A stretch of DNA of 6,623 bases from SAR92 clade bacterium (GTDB lineage Bacteria; Pseudomonadota; Gammaproteobacteria; Pseudomonadales; Porticoccaceae): NCBI GenBank assembly GCA_018607545.1, contig JABBBF010000099.1, forward strand, positions 1 to 6,623. The letters are read 5' to 3'. The notes beneath the pieces were generated by a model. The model was not told where the DNA came from. It worked only from the letters and a program-made list of their open reading frames with translations, and did no database searches. This document shows, one piece after another, positions 1,019 to 6,623 of the stretch. The position numbers and the translations under genes are program-made. Within the stretch, counting starts at the first letter, position 1, and every line of letters begins with the position of its first letter.

Positions 1019-1080
1019 CGCTAAACTAACCTATTCCGTTCACTAGAATGGCAGTGAGTAGGAAGCCACAAACGTTGGCT
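991..1080 (-). repeat. Upstream copy of the ~90-bp tandem duplication (overlaps the end of the TorF-like gene)
   Basis: This copy comprises stem-loop B, the bases between it and the stop codon, and the last 12 or so codons of the intact outer-membrane protein gene. It is the partner of 881-970. Because it includes functional coding sequence, it is probably the parental copy. Confidence 0.65.
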
Positions 1081-1666
1081 CTGCTTCTTCAGCTGTAGAT
1101 CCAAATGGCGTGCTGTAGGTGAACGACAGTGAGTCATTGTAGCTGTAAGTCACGTCGAAGTTTTCTTGATCGTTAGCACCGTTATCGTGAGCACCATACA
1201 TCAGAGAGAAAGCACCAACGTCATAGCCAAGAGTGGTGTAAGAATAGTTGCTGTCGATATCATCATAGACAGTAAGGCTTACTGGGCCGTAGCCTACAGA
1301 GTAAACATATTCTTGTAATTCAGACGCTTCATTGTTGGTATCTGCAGATGGATAAATATAGGTAAAGTAGCTGAGGCTATAGTTGAACTCGCCAACTGAT
1401 CCGCCGTAACCAGCAAAGAAATCATACTCAGTTCCCATAGCAACATCGCCGGAAGAAACCCACATGCCAGCAGTGAAACCACCTTCGCTGTAAACTATGT
1501 CGGCAGCCAGTGCTGCGTCGCCTTGACCTAGGTCGTATCCACGCCATAAGTAAGAAGAAGAAACCGAAGCAGAAGCCGAGACTTCAGCAATGGCTACAGG
1601 TGCAACCGCGAAAGACAAAGTTGATACTGCAGCAGCAGCGATCAGGGTTTTCTTGAACATTTTCAT
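1043..1666 (-). CDS. TorF/Gcw_chp-family putative porin (secreted outer-membrane beta-barrel protein)
   Basis: A 207-residue protein with a clear Sec signal peptide: basic MKMFKK, a hydrophobic alanine-rich core, and a likely cleavage after AIA at residue 27. The mature protein opens with SSSYLWRGYDLGQG (about residues 36-49), the signature of the proteobacterial family annotated as TorF or Gcw_chp (PF09694/TIGR02001). Alternating hydrophobic and polar residues, many Tyr, Ser and Gly, and a C-terminal phenylalanine (SYSLPF) fit an outer-membrane beta-barrel with a terminal Bam-recognition residue. It looks slightly short for the family. Its solute, if any, is unknown. The first ATG has GAGG 11 bases upstream, a rather long spacing; a second in-frame ATG two codons later would be further still. 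It appears monocistronic, with its own candidate promoter (1782-1810) and terminator (816-855). A decayed copy of its 3' end lies downstream. Confidence 0.87.
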   Translation of the reverse strand: MKMFKKTLIAAAAVSTLSFAVAPVAIAEVSASASVSSSYLWRGYDLGQGDAALAADIVYSEGGFTAGMWVSSGDVAMGTEYDFFAGYGGSVGEFNYSLSYFTYIYPSADTNNEASELQEYVYSVGYGPVSLTVYDDIDSNYSYTTLGYDVGAFSLMYGAHDNGANDQENFDVTYSYNDSLSFTYSTPFGSTAEEAEPTFVASYSLPF

Positions 1667-1781: not shown

Positions 1782-1810
1782 TTTATATTAAAGACAATGG
1801 GTTATTTTAA
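1782..1810 (-). promoter_or_regulatory. Candidate sigma-70 promoter of the TorF-like gene
   Basis: On the minus strand TTAAAA (1810-1805, 4/6 to the -35 consensus) is followed after exactly 17 bases by TATAAA (1787-1782, 5/6 to the -10 consensus). Transcription would start near 1775, giving a leader of about 110 nt. The region is A+T-rich, so a chance match is possible. Confidence 0.4.
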
Positions 1811-1842
1811 TATGCGTGTTAAACACTAGAGGACTACGCATA
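1811..1842. repeat. 7-bp inverted repeat between the response-regulator gene and the TorF-like promoter
   Basis: TATGCGT (1811-1817) and ACGCATA (1836-1842) are perfect reverse complements around an 18-base loop. The element starts 22 bases after the response-regulator stop codon. On the minus strand the exit is TTAAAATAAC, not a proper U-run, so it is at best a weak terminator for the kinase-regulator operon. It abuts the candidate -35 of the next gene and could instead be an operator. Confidence 0.35.
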
Positions 1843-1863
1843 ATGACTTATAGAGTAGTGCCG

Positions 1864-2772
1864 TTACTTTATTTGACTCAGATATCTTAGAGAAATAGCT
1901 GCCGCAGTAGTGCGATTTTCAACATTTAATTTACGGAATATTTGTTCCAGATGTTTATTCGCGGTGCGCGGACTAAAATCCAAAATAATCGCAATTTCAT
2001 GATTGGTTTTTCCCTTAGCAATCCAGGTTAATACTTCGGCTTCTCTGGCCGTAAGACCAAATTTATCTCTCAGTAGATCCGCTTCATTGGGTTTGTTTGC
2101 CAGTTCGACAACCAATAGCCTCTCATCAGTATCCTGAGATTCCAGTGCGCTAAATAATAATGGCTGTTCTAAATCATCTAGTCGAAGAGGCTTTTTAGCT
2201 CCCAGTGCCAGCCAAGGTTGCAATCTTGCGGGCAAGGTATGTGCTATCCAATCCGGCGTAGCACCACTGCTCGCCATTAGACTGTGAGTGTTGGGCGTGG
2301 ACCAGAGGATTTTGCCCCTTAGATCCACTGACAGAGAGTATTGGCCCAGAGTGTCGAGCGCCTGGCGCGCGCCGTTAGCGATCCGTGAGTTAGTCAGCTG
2401 AGCGCCAATTCTTGCCACTAAGCCCTGAACGTCTATGGGTTTGGTGACATAGTCGATACCTCCTGCATCGAAGCCTCGAACTATATCTTCACTGGCGTTT
2501 AGCCCGGTCATAAAGATCACCGGAATGTGGGCGATGAGGGCGTCTCCCTTGATTAGGCGGCAGGCTTCAAAGCCATCCATTTCCGGCATCATTGCATCCA
2601 TCAAAATAATTTCTGGCTTGATACGCTTGGCGATGGTCAGTGCCTGCTGCCCAGACAGCGCGACCAGGACCGTGAGACCTACATCCGAGAGGGTGGTGTT
2701 GAGCATGCTTATGGTTTCTGGGTTGTCGTCTACGATCAATACGACGCCACTACATTTTGAATTAGATTTCAT
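1864..2772 (-). CDS. LuxR-type response regulator (REC - PAS-like linker - HTH), partner of the permease-kinase
   Basis: A 302-residue cytoplasmic transcription factor. Residues 9-125 form a complete receiver: acidic pair D15/D16, phospho-acceptor D59 in LMDAMMPEMDG, T89 and K111 (in TKP). Residues 137-225 form a linker whose SVDLRGKILWSTPN segment resembles the start of a PAS domain, though weakly. Residues 240-300 are a LuxR/NarL helix-turn-helix, opening LTAREAEVL with the recognition region SPRTANKHLEQIFRKL. The ATG overlaps the last 11 bases of the kinase gene, and the bases before it hold no good ribosome site, which points to translational coupling and a tight stoichiometric pair. All residues needed for phosphorylation-controlled DNA binding are present. 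The natural target would be the divergent urea-transporter promoter and perhaps its own operon; this is inferred from position only. Confidence 0.9.
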   Translation of the reverse strand: MKSNSKCSGVVLIVDDNPETISMLNTTLSDVGLTVLVALSGQQALTIAKRIKPEIILMDAMMPEMDGFEACRLIKGDALIAHIPVIFMTGLNASEDIVRGFDAGGIDYVTKPIDVQGLVARIGAQLTNSRIANGARQALDTLGQYSLSVDLRGKILWSTPNTHSLMASSGATPDWIAHTLPARLQPWLALGAKKPLRLDDLEQPLLFSALESQDTDERLLVVELANKPNEADLLRDKFGLTAREAEVLTWIAKGKTNHEIAIILDFSPRTANKHLEQIFRKLNVENRTTAAAISLRYLSQIK

Positions 2773-5700
2773 TATTTATCGTCGTCAGTTGGGAGTGGAT
2801 TTTTATTAGGTCTAGCTGTGCCAAATTACGATTTAATTCAGCACATAATTGAGGCTTCAAACGGCCGGCTTTTTCCGCTTTAGTTAGGGCATTTTTAAAT
2901 CCATCGACATAACCAATATCAATAAAAGAGAGCAATTCTCTGACAATTAGAGGGTCATTTTTAATGCCATTATCTGAGGATTTCGCGCTGTCCTGGACCT
3001 CGCTGGCTAGTTCCAAGGTGATATCAAGCTGGTCCGCCAGAGTGGCTAGCAGGGTCGGCATATTCACTGGCTTAACCAGGTAGTCATTGTGCAGCGGTGT
3101 ATTGTCCTCTCTGCCAGGGCTCGCTCCAAGACCTTCATCTGCCTCTGCTGAGATCATAACTATGGGCACAGTTAAGCCGCGCTGGCGCAGTTCTGCGGCT
3201 AGCTCCCAACCAGTCATATTGGGCATGGAAATATCCAGCATAAATAACTTAGGGGTACATTGTTCGAGCATCCGTAGGCAGGAGGCACCGTCAGCGGCGG
3301 CAATAACATTGAAGCCGAGGGGCGTTAGGGTGTCGATTAACAGACGCCGCTGAACCGCATCGTCGTCCACCACCATTAGGCTCAGGGTTTCGCCGTGATA
3401 GCCGATAACCCGGTCTGCCACTACTGGTTGATGACTGACTTCGCGACTGCTCGGCAGCATCAGTGAAACTCTAAATGTGGAACCTTTCCCGAACTCACTT
3501 TCAATACTTAAATCGCCACCCATGCGGTGCACCAGAGCCTGGGTAATGGCTAGTCCAAGGCCACTGCCAGCAACCTGATACTTGGGGTCGGCAATACGCA
3601 CAAAGGCCTCAGATATACGGGATATATTGTCGCGTTCGATTCCGACCCCGGTATCGGTTACGGTGAAATAGGCCACCTGGTTACGGTATTTAAGATCCAC
3701 CGTAACGCTGCCCTCTGGAGTGAATTTTATCGCATTGGAAATCAGGTTGATCATCACCTGACGCAGTCGTTTACCGTCGGCAATAACTGTCTCTGGAAGT
3801 CTTTCCTGATGGCTAAAATTGAGGTTTATATTTTTGCTTTGGGCCTGTATTTGAAACATATACATAAGCTGTTCAATCATCGCCAGCATATCCACTCTGT
3901 TTCTGTGCAGGTCGAGTCTTCCTGCCTCAATCTTAGAAATATCTACCAGCCCTTCTATCAGATCGGTGAGGTGTTCACTGCTGCTGCGCATCACCTTAAT
4001 CGACTCGCGGCGGGGCAGGGGAATATCATCGGCGCCCTCAAGTAGCTGGGCATAGCCCATAACCGAGTTCAGCGGAGTCCGCAGTTCGTGGCTAATTCTT
4101 TCCAGATAACGACTCTTGGCAATGTTGGCGGCATCGGCTTTTTCTTTCGACTGTTGCAGTTTCAGATCCGTTTTTTTATGAGCGCTAATTTCATTGATCA
4201 GTAACTGAGTTTGGCGCTGAGATTCGTCTTGCGCCAGTTGACGTCCCTCCATACTCAGTAGGTAAGACCAGGTGGCCACCGTTAAAACGATTATCGAAAT
4301 CGCTGACAGGGTCCAGGAAAATATCTCAATCAGGGCTAGTTGGTCAGGATAAAGGCTGATGGTTTTTATCGATGCCAGCTTGATCAATGATAAGAAAATC
4401 CCCAAATTAACGCTAAATAAGACGGCAAATTTAAAAGCTCGAGATTGGATGTGTCGCAGCCTGACGGATTTGAAAAACAGCTGCACAAAGATTAAAAATT
4501 GATTCGATATCAGACCTTCGGTTCGGCAGGCATCTTTGCAGTGTGCGTCCAGAGAGCAGCATAGAGAACATATCGGTAGCTGATAGAGCGGGCAGTAGGT
4601 CATGTCTGGCTTTTCGAAAATATTTTCACAGACTCCACATTGCTCGCTAGCTAGAGAGCCAGACGGCCCGGTATTCAATGGCGCTGGACGCACAATGTAA
4701 TAGCGCCCCTTGGTAGCCCACGCAATTAATGGAGAGATTACAAAGGTCAGAGCCAGTGTGATAAATGACGAGAAAGCCTGGGCTTCAATACCCAGCAAAC
4801 CGTTGTATGCAATGATGCCCAGGATCATAGATATGAGCATGGCTCCCACACCAACCGGATTGATATCGTAGAGATGGGCGCGCTTAAATTCTATATGGGG
4901 CGGACTCAGACCCATTGGTTTATTGATTACCAAATCCGCCACCATAGAGCCAATCCAGGAGAGCGCAATAATGCCGAATATACCCAGGGTCTTTACCAGT
5001 GCGCTATAGATACCCACTTCCATCAGAATAATTGCCACCACCACATTAAACACTACCCAGACCACACGCCCTGGATGGGCATGGGTAAGGCGGGCGAAAA
5101 AATTTGACCAGGCGATGGAGCCAGCGTAGACATTGGTGACATTAATTTTTAACTGTGACAGCACCACAAAGGCTGCGGTCAGAGCTAAGATGGTAGATGG
5201 AGATTGGCTCACATAGCTAAAGGCCACCAGATACATCTGGGTGGGCTCGGCGGCCTGCTCGGGACTGATACCGTAGTTGATCGCCAGCACCAATAAAAAA
5301 GAGCCAAGTAATAATTTAAAAGCGCCAATAAGGATCCAGCCAGGGCCGGCCAAAATAGTTGCCAGCCACCAAGATCGTTTACCGGCTATTGATTGCGGGG
5401 GAATAAAACGTGCGTAATCGGCCTGCTCGCCAATCTGCGCCACCAGAGAAAATAGCAGAGTCGAGGCCGCGCCGATCATCAGCCAGTCAAACTCTGGACC
5501 GCTTTGGTTCTGCCCTTGAAACTTAACCCAGTTATCAATACTGCCCATATCGTTGACCAGAATATAACCGATGGGCAGCAGCTGCAGCAGTACCCAGAAT
5601 GGCTGTGTCCAGGTTTGAAAGCGGGTGATCATGGTGATGCCATAGGTGACTATGGGAATCACTAACAGGGTGCTCACTAGATAGCCCCAGTGCAAGGGCA

Positions 5701-6145
5701 GGCCGAAGATAAGTTCCAATGCCAGGGCCATAATGCTGGCTTCAAGGGCTAAAAAGATAAAGGTAAACGAGGCATAGACCAGCGAAGTGATAGTAGAACC
5801 AATGTAGCCGAACCCGGCTCCGCGAGTTAGCAGGTCTATATCAAGCCCGTATTTACTGCTGTAATAACTGATCGGCATTGAGAGCAGTAGCAGAACCACG
5901 CTCACCAGTAAGATTGAAGCCACAGCGTTGTTAAAACCATAGCTCAGGGTGATGGAGCCGCCAATCGCCTCTAGGGCCAAAAAGGTAATTGCGCCCAAAG
6001 CGGTGCTTGCGACTTTTAGCGCTCTCCATTTTCGTGCGCCGACACTGGTGAAGCGGAGCGCGTAGTCTTCCAGGGTTTGATTGCCAACCCATTGGTTGTA
6101 CTTGCGCCGCGCGCCAAAGACGCCTTGCTTTGTTCTAGCAGTCAT
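2762..6145 (-). CDS. NCS1-type permease fused to hybrid sensor histidine kinase (transporter-kinase)
   Basis: A 1127-residue inner-membrane sensor. Residues 20-475 are an NCS1 (purine/cytosine/hydantoin/allantoin) permease with about 12 membrane helices; family-like stretches include LLTRGAGFGYIGS and EQADYARFIPP. Residues 503-540 hold eight cysteines (503, 506, 518, 526, 529, 530, 536, 540) in CxxC-type spacing, a probable metal-binding or redox module. Two more helices (about 571-595 and 605-630) and a coiled coil lead to HisKA with H686 in ISHELRTPLN. HATPase_c follows with N800/N804, DTGVGI (831-836) and GSGLGLAI (860-867). The receiver (about 922-1040) has D927/D928, D971, S999 and K1025. 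A helical tail of about 70 residues has no visible Hpt histidine. The start is the ATG at 6145, with AGGTG at a good distance; a TTG one codon earlier would lie too close. All phosphorelay residues are intact. CbrA is a comparable fusion but with an SSS-type transporter. The ligand is unknown; a purine-derived nitrogen compound is plausible. Confidence 0.9.
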   Translation of the reverse strand: MTARTKQGVFGARRKYNQWVGNQTLEDYALRFTSVGARKWRALKVASTALGAITFLALEAIGGSITLSYGFNNAVASILLVSVVLLLLSMPISYYSSKYGLDIDLLTRGAGFGYIGSTITSLVYASFTFIFLALEASIMALALELIFGLPLHWGYLVSTLLVIPIVTYGITMITRFQTWTQPFWVLLQLLPIGYILVNDMGSIDNWVKFQGQNQSGPEFDWLMIGAASTLLFSLVAQIGEQADYARFIPPQSIAGKRSWWLATILAGPGWILIGAFKLLLGSFLLVLAINYGISPEQAAEPTQMYLVAFSYVSQSPSTILALTAAFVVLSQLKINVTNVYAGSIAWSNFFARLTHAHPGRVVWVVFNVVVAIILMEVGIYSALVKTLGIFGIIALSWIGSMVADLVINKPMGLSPPHIEFKRAHLYDINPVGVGAMLISMILGIIAYNGLLGIEAQAFSSFITLALTFVISPLIAWATKGRYYIVRPAPLNTGPSGSLASEQCGVCENIFEKPDMTYCPLYQLPICSLCCSLDAHCKDACRTEGLISNQFLIFVQLFFKSVRLRHIQSRAFKFAVLFSVNLGIFLSLIKLASIKTISLYPDQLALIEIFSWTLSAISIIVLTVATWSYLLSMEGRQLAQDESQRQTQLLINEISAHKKTDLKLQQSKEKADAANIAKSRYLERISHELRTPLNSVMGYAQLLEGADDIPLPRRESIKVMRSSSEHLTDLIEGLVDISKIEAGRLDLHRNRVDMLAMIEQLMYMFQIQAQSKNINLNFSHQERLPETVIADGKRLRQVMINLISNAIKFTPEGSVTVDLKYRNQVAYFTVTDTGVGIERDNISRISEAFVRIADPKYQVAGSGLGLAITQALVHRMGGDLSIESEFGKGSTFRVSLMLPSSREVSHQPVVADRVIGYHGETLSLMVVDDDAVQRRLLIDTLTPLGFNVIAAADGASCLRMLEQCTPKLFMLDISMPNMTGWELAAELRQRGLTVPIVMISAEADEGLGASPGREDNTPLHNDYLVKPVNMPTLLATLADQLDITLELASEVQDSAKSSDNGIKNDPLIVRELLSFIDIGYVDGFKNALTKAEKAGRLKPQLCAELNRNLAQLDLIKIHSQLTTINNEI

Positions 6146-6211: not shown

Positions 6212-6343
6212 TAAAGCGGTAAAGTCATAGAAGCCATTTTAAATCGAAATCGCCTACCTCTTTTCGAGCAGTCTTTTATCCTCCCAGACGATCCCTCAAA
6301 CGCCTATGCGCCAAATAACGTATACCTCGGGCTATAAGGCGAA

Positions 6344-6403: not shown

Positions 6404-6623
6404 ATGAAAAGCTCCATTACTAACAACATCCCAAGCTGGCGTCGCGCTCTGCTGGTATCTGCTGCAGCCTTTGCAGTGGCCCAAGCAGGCTTGACTAATG
6501 CAGCATCTGACGAATATGCAACATCCGTAGTTAACACCACTGGTCTCGCGGTTACCGACGACACAGTAACTGTCGGTATCCTTCACTCGATCACCGGCAC
6601 CATGGCGATCAGTGAGACGGGTT
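6404..6623 (+). CDS. urtA: Urea/short-chain amide ABC transporter periplasmic binding protein UrtA, N-terminal 73 residues, cut by window end
   Basis: The ATG at 6404 is preceded by GAGG (6393-6396) at a spacing of 7 bases. The first 35 or so residues are a signal peptide: a polar N-region with WRR, the core ALLVSAAAFAVAQAG, and a likely cleavage near NAA-S. The mature start includes DDTVTVGILHSITGTMAISE, the highly conserved N-terminal motif of UrtA and the related amide-binding proteins FmdD and AmiC. The protein would bind urea or a short-chain amide in the periplasm and deliver it to the UrtBCDE membrane complex, whose genes normally follow. The full protein is usually about 400-430 residues. 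It is divergent from the permease-kinase gene, with 258 bp between starts. UrtA is preferred over FmdD/AmiC from the motif and common genome context, but the missing part would be needed to separate them. Confidence 0.88.
   Translation, partial: MKSSITNNIPSWRRALLVSAAAFAVAQAGLTNAASDEYATSVVNTTGLAVTDDTVTVGILHSITGTMAISETG

What the first reader, a model, noticed from the sequence alone, without database searches (positions are those of the whole stretch)
2762..6145. NCS1 permease welded to a hybrid histidine kinase: a candidate nitrogen-compound transceptor
One protein carries a full-length NCS1-type permease (about 12 helices), a cysteine cluster, two further helices, and an intact HisKA-HATPase-REC chain. 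Transporter-kinase fusions are known (CbrA with an SSS-family transporter), so the principle is not new. The NCS1 version is much less characterised, and its ligand and whether it still transports are unknown. NCS1 proteins carry purines, cytosine, allantoin, hydantoins and related compounds, several of which are degraded to urea. With urtA divergent, a plausible logic is sensing of an upstream purine or ureide to induce urea uptake.
Basis: partly seen in the sequence, partly recalled or inferred. Interest (0 to 1): 0.75.

Follow-up and report, generated by a model that had tools for sequence, protein, structure and literature searches.

The report
Urea/amide sensor kinase with permease domain
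This is a widespread but almost unstudied bacterial sensor, a permease-like membrane domain joined to a signalling kinase, that most likely detects urea or small amides and switches on the genes that import and break them down; close relatives also sit on Klebsiella plasmids.

Summary
The fusion is real: one 1127-residue protein (window 6145-2762, minus) with an NCS1-fold permease domain, a cysteine cluster, two more helices and HisKA-HATPase-REC. A LuxR-type regulator gene overlaps its end; urtA starts divergently. The permease model (pLDDT 90.7) matches CodB and Mhp1 above every other listed structure. The nearest stand-alone permeases, sharing the key site residues, lie beside urease, formamidase or amidase genes in 4 of 5 annotated contexts read. 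A palindrome, TRCGTCAWWTGACGTA, lies between kinase and urtA (window 6307-6322, 2 mismatches). At up to one mismatch it is in 69 of 80 kinase genomes and 7 of 40 others; of 53 exact sites the 52 that could be placed lie at urtA, amiE, fmdA, ureD, putative-porin or kinase starts, some far from the kinase. Best reading: a urea/short-chain-amide receptor kinase from an NCS1 amide-permease branch. Ligand binding, transport and operator binding are inferred. AmsS of Acinetobacter is probably a studied member; its energy phenotype fits less well.

The parts
2762..6145 (-). NCS1-fold sensor domain fused to a hybrid histidine kinase (1127 aa from the ATG at 6145)
4676..6088 (-). NCS1-fold permease domain, about residues 20-490
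4526..4639 (-). cysteine cluster, residues 503-540, probable zinc site(s)
   Evidence: alignment columns; four of the cysteines (503, 506, 526, 529) kept in the stand-alone sister permeases
4247..4441 (-). two further transmembrane helices before the kinase
   Evidence: sequence; helices in the full-length model (low confidence)
3920..4117 (-). HisKA domain
   Evidence: Pfam
3455..3778 (-). HATPase_c domain
   Evidence: Pfam
3038..3376 (-). receiver (REC) domain of the hybrid kinase; no Pfam HPt match in the protein
   Evidence: Pfam
1864..2772 (-). partner response regulator (REC + GerE/LuxR DNA-binding), overlapping the kinase gene by 11 bases
   Evidence: same position in 79 of 80 and 80 of 81 related loci
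6307..6322 (.). predicted operator TGCGCCAAATAACGTA (2 mismatches to TRCGTCAWWTGACGTA)
   Evidence: regulon
6404..6622 (+). 5' end of urtA (cut by the window), the predicted target operon
   Evidence: sequence by eye; urtABCDE-fmdA-fmdB at this place in L125 and L127

Best explanation
A transceptor-type sensor kinase for urea and short-chain amides (formamide, acetamide). Its membrane half belongs to a branch of NCS1-fold permeases whose stand-alone members are probably urea/amide permeases. Ligand occupancy or turnover in that domain changes, through the cysteine cluster and two extra helices, the activity of the HisKA-HATPase-REC part, which controls the LuxR-type regulator made from the next gene. 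The regulator binds the palindrome TRCGTCAWWTGACGTA upstream of urtABCDE and, by genome, of amiE, fmdAB, a putative porin or ureD, so that cells make uptake and hydrolysis proteins when the substrate is present. Shown here by computation: architecture, fold, gene partnerships, palindrome and its genome-wide placement. Inferred: the ligand, that it binds in the NCS1 cavity, the direction of the kinase switch, that this regulator binds the palindrome, and activation rather than repression.
For: Partners: in the 80 best relatives from genome contigs the regulator follows in 79, urtA is divergent within 1.6 kb in 66 of the 75 with enough upstream DNA, and 52 have formamidase or amidase, 8 urease, 1 both, 11 urtA only, 8 none. 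In 81 loci from an order-wide sample (80 of 293 genomes match; G069 holds only a fragment and is left out): 38 amide, 19 urease, 2 both, 7 urtA only, 15 none. The two closest genomes (91% and 89%) carry urtABCDE-fmdA-fmdB with ureG and ureF convergent; L194 shows the rest of the urease operon by eye. Palindrome: 62 of 108 kinase-urtA intergenic regions have a site with <=2 mismatches, none of 1080 shuffles do (near-copies included). Genome-wide at <=1 mismatch: 69 of 80 kinase genomes, 7 of 40 without the kinase (Fisher p 1.5e-13, kinship not corrected); the reversed control pattern hits 13 of 80 and 7 of 40. Of 53 exact sites 52 were placed, all at urtA, amiE, fmdA, ureD, putative-porin or kinase starts. 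For 15 kinases with no such genes in the fetched flanks, 11 genomes have the site before urtA at another place. Sister permeases (about 40% identity) keep T128, E135, L234, Q237, E240, Q241, K333 in 120 of 120 listed and lie in urease operons (L238, L252), opposite fmdA-fmdB (L253) or with amiE (L254); one context (L239) has none. In print: an amidase-linked Urt set was already inferred to carry amides (PMC3098086, passages).
Against: No ligand, transport or binding data. The probable member studied in the laboratory, AmsSR of Acinetobacter baumannii, is induced by the ionophore CCCP and its loss alters energy metabolism; the terms 'nitrogen', 'urea' and 'urease' do not occur in that paper's main text (PMC10112286, passages). 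In 4 of 15 genomes whose kinase lacks such neighbours no site was placed at such a gene; of 28 one-mismatch sites that could be placed, 10 are elsewhere. The window's own site is degenerate and its two closest genomes have no site at <=1 mismatch. Whether urea or amides came first is open: the tree root lies on a long outgroup branch.
Confidence: 0.68

Rival explanations
1. One reading: the NCS1 domain senses a purine, hydantoin or ureide, an upstream source of urea, and induces urea uptake in anticipation.
For: Databases name the domain and its stand-alone kin purine-cytosine, cytosine or allantoin permease; the fold is nearest CodB; in L194 a phosphoribosyltransferase and a purine-permease-like gene (by eye) lie roughly 13-17 kb from the kinase start.
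Against: No purine-catabolic genes among the recurrent neighbours that I identified (many smaller gene clusters were not named); allantoicase in 3 of 40 kinase genomes; aromatic sandwich not kept in the alignment; sister permeases sit with urease and amidases.
Confidence: 0.07
2. The membrane half is not a ligand sensor but reads membrane energy, redox/zinc state (cysteine cluster) or general nitrogen status, and the regulator merely tunes urea/amide use.
For: AmsSR, probably of this family, responds to CCCP and affects respiration (PMC10112286, passages); the cysteine cluster is strongly conserved.
Against: The exact palindrome is nearly confined to urea/amide genes, so the output is substrate-specific; putative cavity residues are nearly invariant and shared with stand-alone permeases.
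Confidence: 0.15
3. It is still a working urea/amide uptake permease and the signal is flux, not occupancy.
For: Full-length domain with a confident NCS1-fold model; CbrA, an SLC5-kinase fusion, is stated to mediate histidine uptake (PMC13022988, passages).
Against: Kinase loci usually bring their own UrtABCDE, so transport by the sensor would be redundant; the residue aligned with a Na2 threonine is lysine in 157 of 157 rows, which is alignment-based.
Confidence: 0.2

Closest known systems
CbrA, CrbS, RpuS: SLC5/STAC histidine kinases (PMC13022988, PMC5715377, PMC9100948; passages)
   Same: Transporter-fold domain fused N-terminally to a histidine kinase; CrbS also hybrid, with a LuxR-family regulator that acts through an imperfect palindrome; output is uptake/use genes for the nutrient.
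AmsSR (earlier StkRS) of Acinetobacter baumannii (PMC10112286; passages)
   Same: 14 transmembrane helices, hybrid kinase without HPt, LuxR-type regulator directly downstream. A. baumannii locus L255 encodes just such a pair (1157 + 319 aa, permease part 50% identical to the window's), divergent from a stand-alone sister permease with a 3-mismatch site between.
   Different: The passages read give neither an NCS1 fold nor an amide/urea role; the locus tag was not matched, so identity of AmsS with the L255 kinase is likely but untested.
CodB and Mhp1, NCS1 transporters (PMC9379551; passages)
   Same: Fold of the sensor domain; a shared arginine and FG..GS stretch at TM2-3.
   Different: By alignment Trp108->Phe131, Phe204->Leu234, Gln105->Thr128; Glu135 at the place of Mhp1 Gln121; Lys333 where a Na2 threonine aligns; no kinase.
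Ks-Amt5, ammonium-transporter-histidine kinase fusion (named in PMC12918730; passages)
   Same: Nitrogen-compound transporter fold fused to a histidine kinase.
   Different: Amt fold, ammonium ligand.
AmiC/AmiR and FmdDEF amide systems (recalled; AmiR_N/ANTAR and Peripla_BP_5 seen at L162)
   Same: Control or uptake of short-chain amides; amidase neighbours.
   Different: Different regulator class. In the P. veronii Yu15 locus of PMC13209695 (passages) amiC/amiR are reported absent and FmdB is called the positive regulator; whether this kinase is beside it was not checked.

Membership tests
NCS1 transporter family (sensor domain) | Homology to known NCS1 permeases over the whole domain | tested here: met
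   hhalign of the kinase-permease profile to the L162 permease, which passes PF02133 (36.4 vs 23.5 bits): probability 99.9, 440 columns, 29% identity; to E. coli CodB: probability 93, E 3.1e-7 with the mixed profile A5, but only 10.7%, E 0.0029 with kinase rows alone
NCS1 transporter family (sensor domain) | LeuT-type fold closest to CodB/Mhp1 | tested here: met
NCS1 transporter family (sensor domain) | Direct match to the curated model PF02133 (a detection aid rather than a property) | tested here: not met
   no hit at E<=10 for residues 1-659, nor for two sister permeases at E<=0.1; some sisters carry it, e.g. P0289
NCS1 transporter family (sensor domain) | Aromatic pair on TM3 and TM6 around the substrate | tested here: inconclusive
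   aligned positions are Phe131 and Leu234; alignment-based, no superposition available. I therefore call the domain NCS1-fold / NCS1-derived
Hybrid histidine kinase | HisKA, HATPase_c and REC with catalytic residues | tested here: met
SLC5/STAC histidine kinases (CbrA type) | SLC5-fold transporter domain as nearest fold | tested here: not met
SLC5/STAC histidine kinases (CbrA type) | STAC domain | tested here: inconclusive
   no Pfam hit between permease and HisKA; whether the library holds a STAC model was not checked
AmsS-like kinases | 14 TM + hybrid kinase without HPt + LuxR regulator downstream | tested here: met
   architecture, (helices read from models, the full-length one of low confidence); paper passages
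AmsS-like kinases | Sequence homology to AmsS itself | tested here: inconclusive
   an A. baumannii kinase in L255 is 50% identical in the permease part, but the ABUW_2427 sequence was not at hand
Transceptor | Ligand binding or transport by the membrane domain drives signalling | not testable with these tools
   needs biochemistry

The most novel reading that the evidence does not exclude
A previously unrecognised urea/short-chain-amide branch of the NCS1 fold exists in two forms: stand-alone permeases encoded in urease, formamidase and amidase loci (named allantoin or cytosine permease, including one directly after ureG in Klebsiella), and receptor kinases derived from the same branch that, with one LuxR-type regulator and one palindrome, command urea and amide use across Alpha- and Gammaproteobacteria and on Klebsiella plasmids. 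It would be the first dedicated urea/amide-sensing two-component system with a defined operator.
Probability: 0.5. Interest if true: 0.85.

Novelty: new variant of a known kind. Interest (0 to 1): 0.75.

Why it matters
It proposes a ligand class, regulator and operator for thousands of proteins now called 'ATP-binding protein' or 'hybrid sensor histidine kinase', and a substrate for a branch of permeases called allantoin or cytosine permease. It offers a regulator for urt-fmd-ami operons that lack amiC/amiR. A paired receptor and permease from one branch is a clean system for asking how a transporter becomes a receptor. The same module (kinase, regulator, palindrome, urtABCDE-formamidase) is in both Klebsiella plasmid loci that I read; one preprint on the Klebsiella urea transport cluster names neither a histidine kinase nor a two-component system in its main text (PMC13060141). 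Tests are simple: palindrome reporters and ligand panels in laboratory strains.

Tried and rejected
Rejected: purine/ureide ligand (see rival). Rejected: sigma-54 control of urtA; a -24/-12 pattern in 1 of 108 intergenic regions. Rejected after a second alignment: an idea that QIGEQ (237-241) is a kinase-specific insertion in TM6. The gap moves with the alignment (against 122) and the stand-alone sister permeases have QIGEQ too. Weak: residues that separate amide from urease loci are mostly clade markers. Led nowhere: viral contigs hold no relative by tblastn; the full-length model is poor (pLDDT 66) and its fold search lists kinase and receiver structures; NCS1 structures are not reached by sequence from A4 or A2. 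Paper searches gave no description of an NCS1-kinase fusion or of the palindrome in the rows listed; only open PubMed Central papers are held and for only 12, 10 and 10 of 1558, 492 and 2398 hits were listed.

Limits: the 80 loci are the best of 536 and rich in Bradyrhizobium; sets A and B share some genomes (e.g. L001/L175); L162 (stand-alone permease) and L163 (fragment) were left out of set B. Some 'urtA only' and 'none' loci are cut by contig ends. The palindrome was derived from kinase-urtA regions, so sites there are not independent, while fmdA, ureD and distant urtA sites are. Of the 11 'another place' sites one (G168) is 5 kb downstream of the kinase and one (G156) is on another contig of a locus cut at the contig end. 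Genomes without the kinase are the first 40 unmatched handles, not a random draw. One search was a first scan of 17 genomes (10 with a match; G164 in it is not among the kinase genomes) and is not in the tallies. The porin beside urtA in some loci is so named by eye; it has no Pfam match. Sister-permease contexts were chosen by me from 37 plasmid-collection records, at least four of them chromosome-sized (L252 and L255 come from such); five annotated ones were read and L239 showed no urea/amide gene. In unannotated L255 the reference set hits, besides kinase, regulator and permease, only an ABC ATPase at 29%.

Full report
WHAT IS THERE. The window's minus strand holds one gene for a 1127-residue protein (6145-2762) followed, with an 11-base overlap, by a LuxR-type response regulator gene (2772-1864); urtA starts divergently at 6404 and is cut by the window edge. 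Pfam recognises HisKA, HATPase_c and REC, and nothing in residues 1-659. Homologues start at the ATG at 6145. All 8000 candidates scored (a cap) match residues 1-640; the closest named ones are Porticoccaceae and SAR92 bacteria. Downstream lie a TorF-type porin gene (1043-1666) and the start of a transporter gene (619-2, bile-acid-symporter-like by eye).

NEIGHBOURS. NCBIfam names the recurrent divergent operon UrtA, B, C, D, E, aliphatic amidase, a ClpB-like AAA protein, formamidase FmdA and an FmdB-type protein, all but the AAA protein above curated cut-offs. Tally: set A, the 80 best loci of genome contigs: regulator downstream 79 of 80; urtA divergent within 1.6 kb in 66 of 75 with enough DNA; formamidase/amidase 52, urease 8, both 1, urtA only 11, none 8. 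Set B, 81 loci from 79 of the 80 genomes (of 293 in one order) that match the permease profile: regulator 80 of 81; urtA within 1.6 kb 37 of 78; formamidase/amidase 38, urease 19, both 2, urtA only 7, none 15. Urease genes of the reference set were confirmed with Pfam. In a tree of 163 rows the amide and urease states need two changes; the window lies in a 117-row clade (support 99) with 85 amide-linked rows. The two genomes nearest the window (91% and 89%) have the same order downstream (regulator, TorF, SBF) and urtABCDE-fmdA-fmdB upstream, with ureG and ureF running towards it. In L194, by eye, all of ureDABCEFG is there, then a phosphoribosyltransferase and a purine-permease-like gene. All 30 of 30 kinase genomes tested have a UrtA above cut-off.

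PALINDROME. In 108 kinase-urtA intergenic regions the commonest spaced words come from one palindrome. Against TACGTCAWWTGACGTA the best site has at most 1 mismatch in 47, 2 in 62, 3 in 71, 4 in 80 of 108; 1080 shuffled regions give none at 2 or fewer. It mostly lies 80-130 bases before urtA. The window's copy is TGCGCCAAATAACGTA at 6307-6322; on the whole window with up to 3 mismatches there are 4 matches (this site on both strands, and two others) against 0.21 expected. Genome-wide with at most one mismatch the pattern is in 34 of 40 and 35 of 40 kinase genomes (G069 holds only a fragment of the gene), mostly once or twice, and in 7 of 40 genomes without the kinase; Fisher p 1.5e-13, kinship not corrected. 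The reversed control pattern hits 13 of the 80 and 7 of the 40 (counted), so the 7 of 40 is the chance level. Of 90 distinct sites, 53 are exact; 52 of these lie in fetched DNA and all 52 are within 450 bases of the start of urtA, amiE, fmdA, ureD, a putative porin or the kinase. Of 37 one-mismatch sites 28 were placed: 18 at such genes (one of them a TorF gene), 10 elsewhere; 9 were not fetched. Thirteen placed sites are at fmdA, several where an amidase block separates it from urt. Where the kinase has none of these neighbours, the site is before urtA at another place in 11 of 15 genomes, mostly urt-urease operons. I read this as the regulator's target; binding itself is untested.

SISTER PERMEASES. 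Searching plasmids with the sensor domain found stand-alone permeases about 40% identical. In a 121-row tree (71 kinase rows, 44 stand-alone, 6 outgroup) each group falls on one side of a branch. T128, E135, L234, Q237, E240, Q241, K333, N335 and N338 are identical in 120 of 120 listed sisters; in 157 kinase rows they are invariant or nearly so (L234 in 145). E59 is Glu in 157 of 157 kinase rows and in none of the 120 sisters. Contexts: A. johnsonii, permease-ureEFGJDABC; Klebsiella, right after ureG; Moraxella, opposite fmdA-fmdB; Arthrobacter, with aliphatic amidase, AAA protein and acs; Streptomyces, nothing of the kind. In an A. baumannii record the sister permease is divergent from a kinase-regulator pair of this family with a 3-mismatch site between.

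SITE. Against CodB (PMC9379551, passages) Gln105, Trp108 and Phe204 align with Thr128, Phe131, Leu234; Mhp1 Gln121 with Glu135; a Na2 threonine with Lys333. These are sequence alignments at about 20% identity; another one shifts TM6 and TM8. Taken at face value the flat-ring sandwich is gone and acidic/amide side chains are fixed, which suits a small polar amide.

MOBILE COPIES. The sensor domain is in 525 of 72,556 plasmid records at E<=1e-20, 342 of them Klebsiella (some are stand-alone sisters). Two Klebsiella loci read have the kinase, the regulator, the palindrome (one mismatch; exact) and urtABCDE-formamidase, one also amidase and AAA. Methylosinus pOB3b1 has kinase and regulator divergent from urtABCDE-ureDABC. 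S. meliloti pSymB has a 2-mismatch site before urtA.

KNOWN OR NEW. Transporter-kinase fusions are known with SLC5 (CbrA, CrbS, RpuS) and Amt folds. No NCS1-fold one was described in the rows listed by seven searches (open papers, three lists capped). One genome paper shows the locus: Ectopseudomonas G3 lists HK and LuxR genes beside urt operon III, with fmdA the next locus tag, and does not join them (PMC13296017, passages). Another describes an amiE-fmdA-fmdB-urt locus without amiC/amiR in P. veronii Yu15, which grows on acetamide and formamide; whether this kinase is beside it was not checked (PMC13209695, passages). AmsSR has the same architecture and an energy phenotype (PMC10112286, passages), the main result that does not fit neatly.

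VERDICT. Observation confirmed; interpretation partly supported, with the ligand revised from purine/ureide to urea and short-chain amides. A new variant of a known kind with a testable regulon.

Noticed in passing
window 1043-1666 (-): TorF-family porin (Gcw_chp) downstream of the regulator, kept in L125 and L127; in genome G237 a one-mismatch palindrome lies at a TorF gene, so the porin may belong to the regulon.
   Followed up: partly
L237 11870-11885; L240 11896-11911: Klebsiella plasmids carry kinase, regulator, palindrome and urtABCDE-formamidase as a module, near transposase genes; the kinase is annotated ATP-binding protein (in other records response regulator or ArcB).
   Followed up: partly
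L255 4379-10611: A. baumannii kinase-regulator pair (probably AmsSR) divergent from a stand-alone sister permease, with a TACGCAAAATAACGTA palindrome between them.
   Followed up: partly
L252 7956-9563: The 'cytosine permease' directly after ureG in a Klebsiella urease operon is a sister of the sensor domain, a candidate urea permease.
   Followed up: partly
L134, L138, L143, L145, L149, L158, L159, L161 (gene beside urtA): A protein of about 385 aa without a Pfam match (porin-like by eye) lies between kinase and urtA and has its own palindrome in some genomes.
   Followed up: no
G046 (L216, L232, L233): A genome without the kinase has several copies of a closely similar palindrome on different contigs, not next to genes of my urea/amide reference set.
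   Followed up: partly
L162 5949-10984: Stand-alone NCS1 permease in a cluster with a double CN_hydrolase, AmiC-like binding protein and AmiR/ANTAR regulator.
   Followed up: partly
window 1790-1850: A longer dyad (ATGCGT...ACGCAT) upstream of the TorF gene, seen by eye.
   Followed up: no
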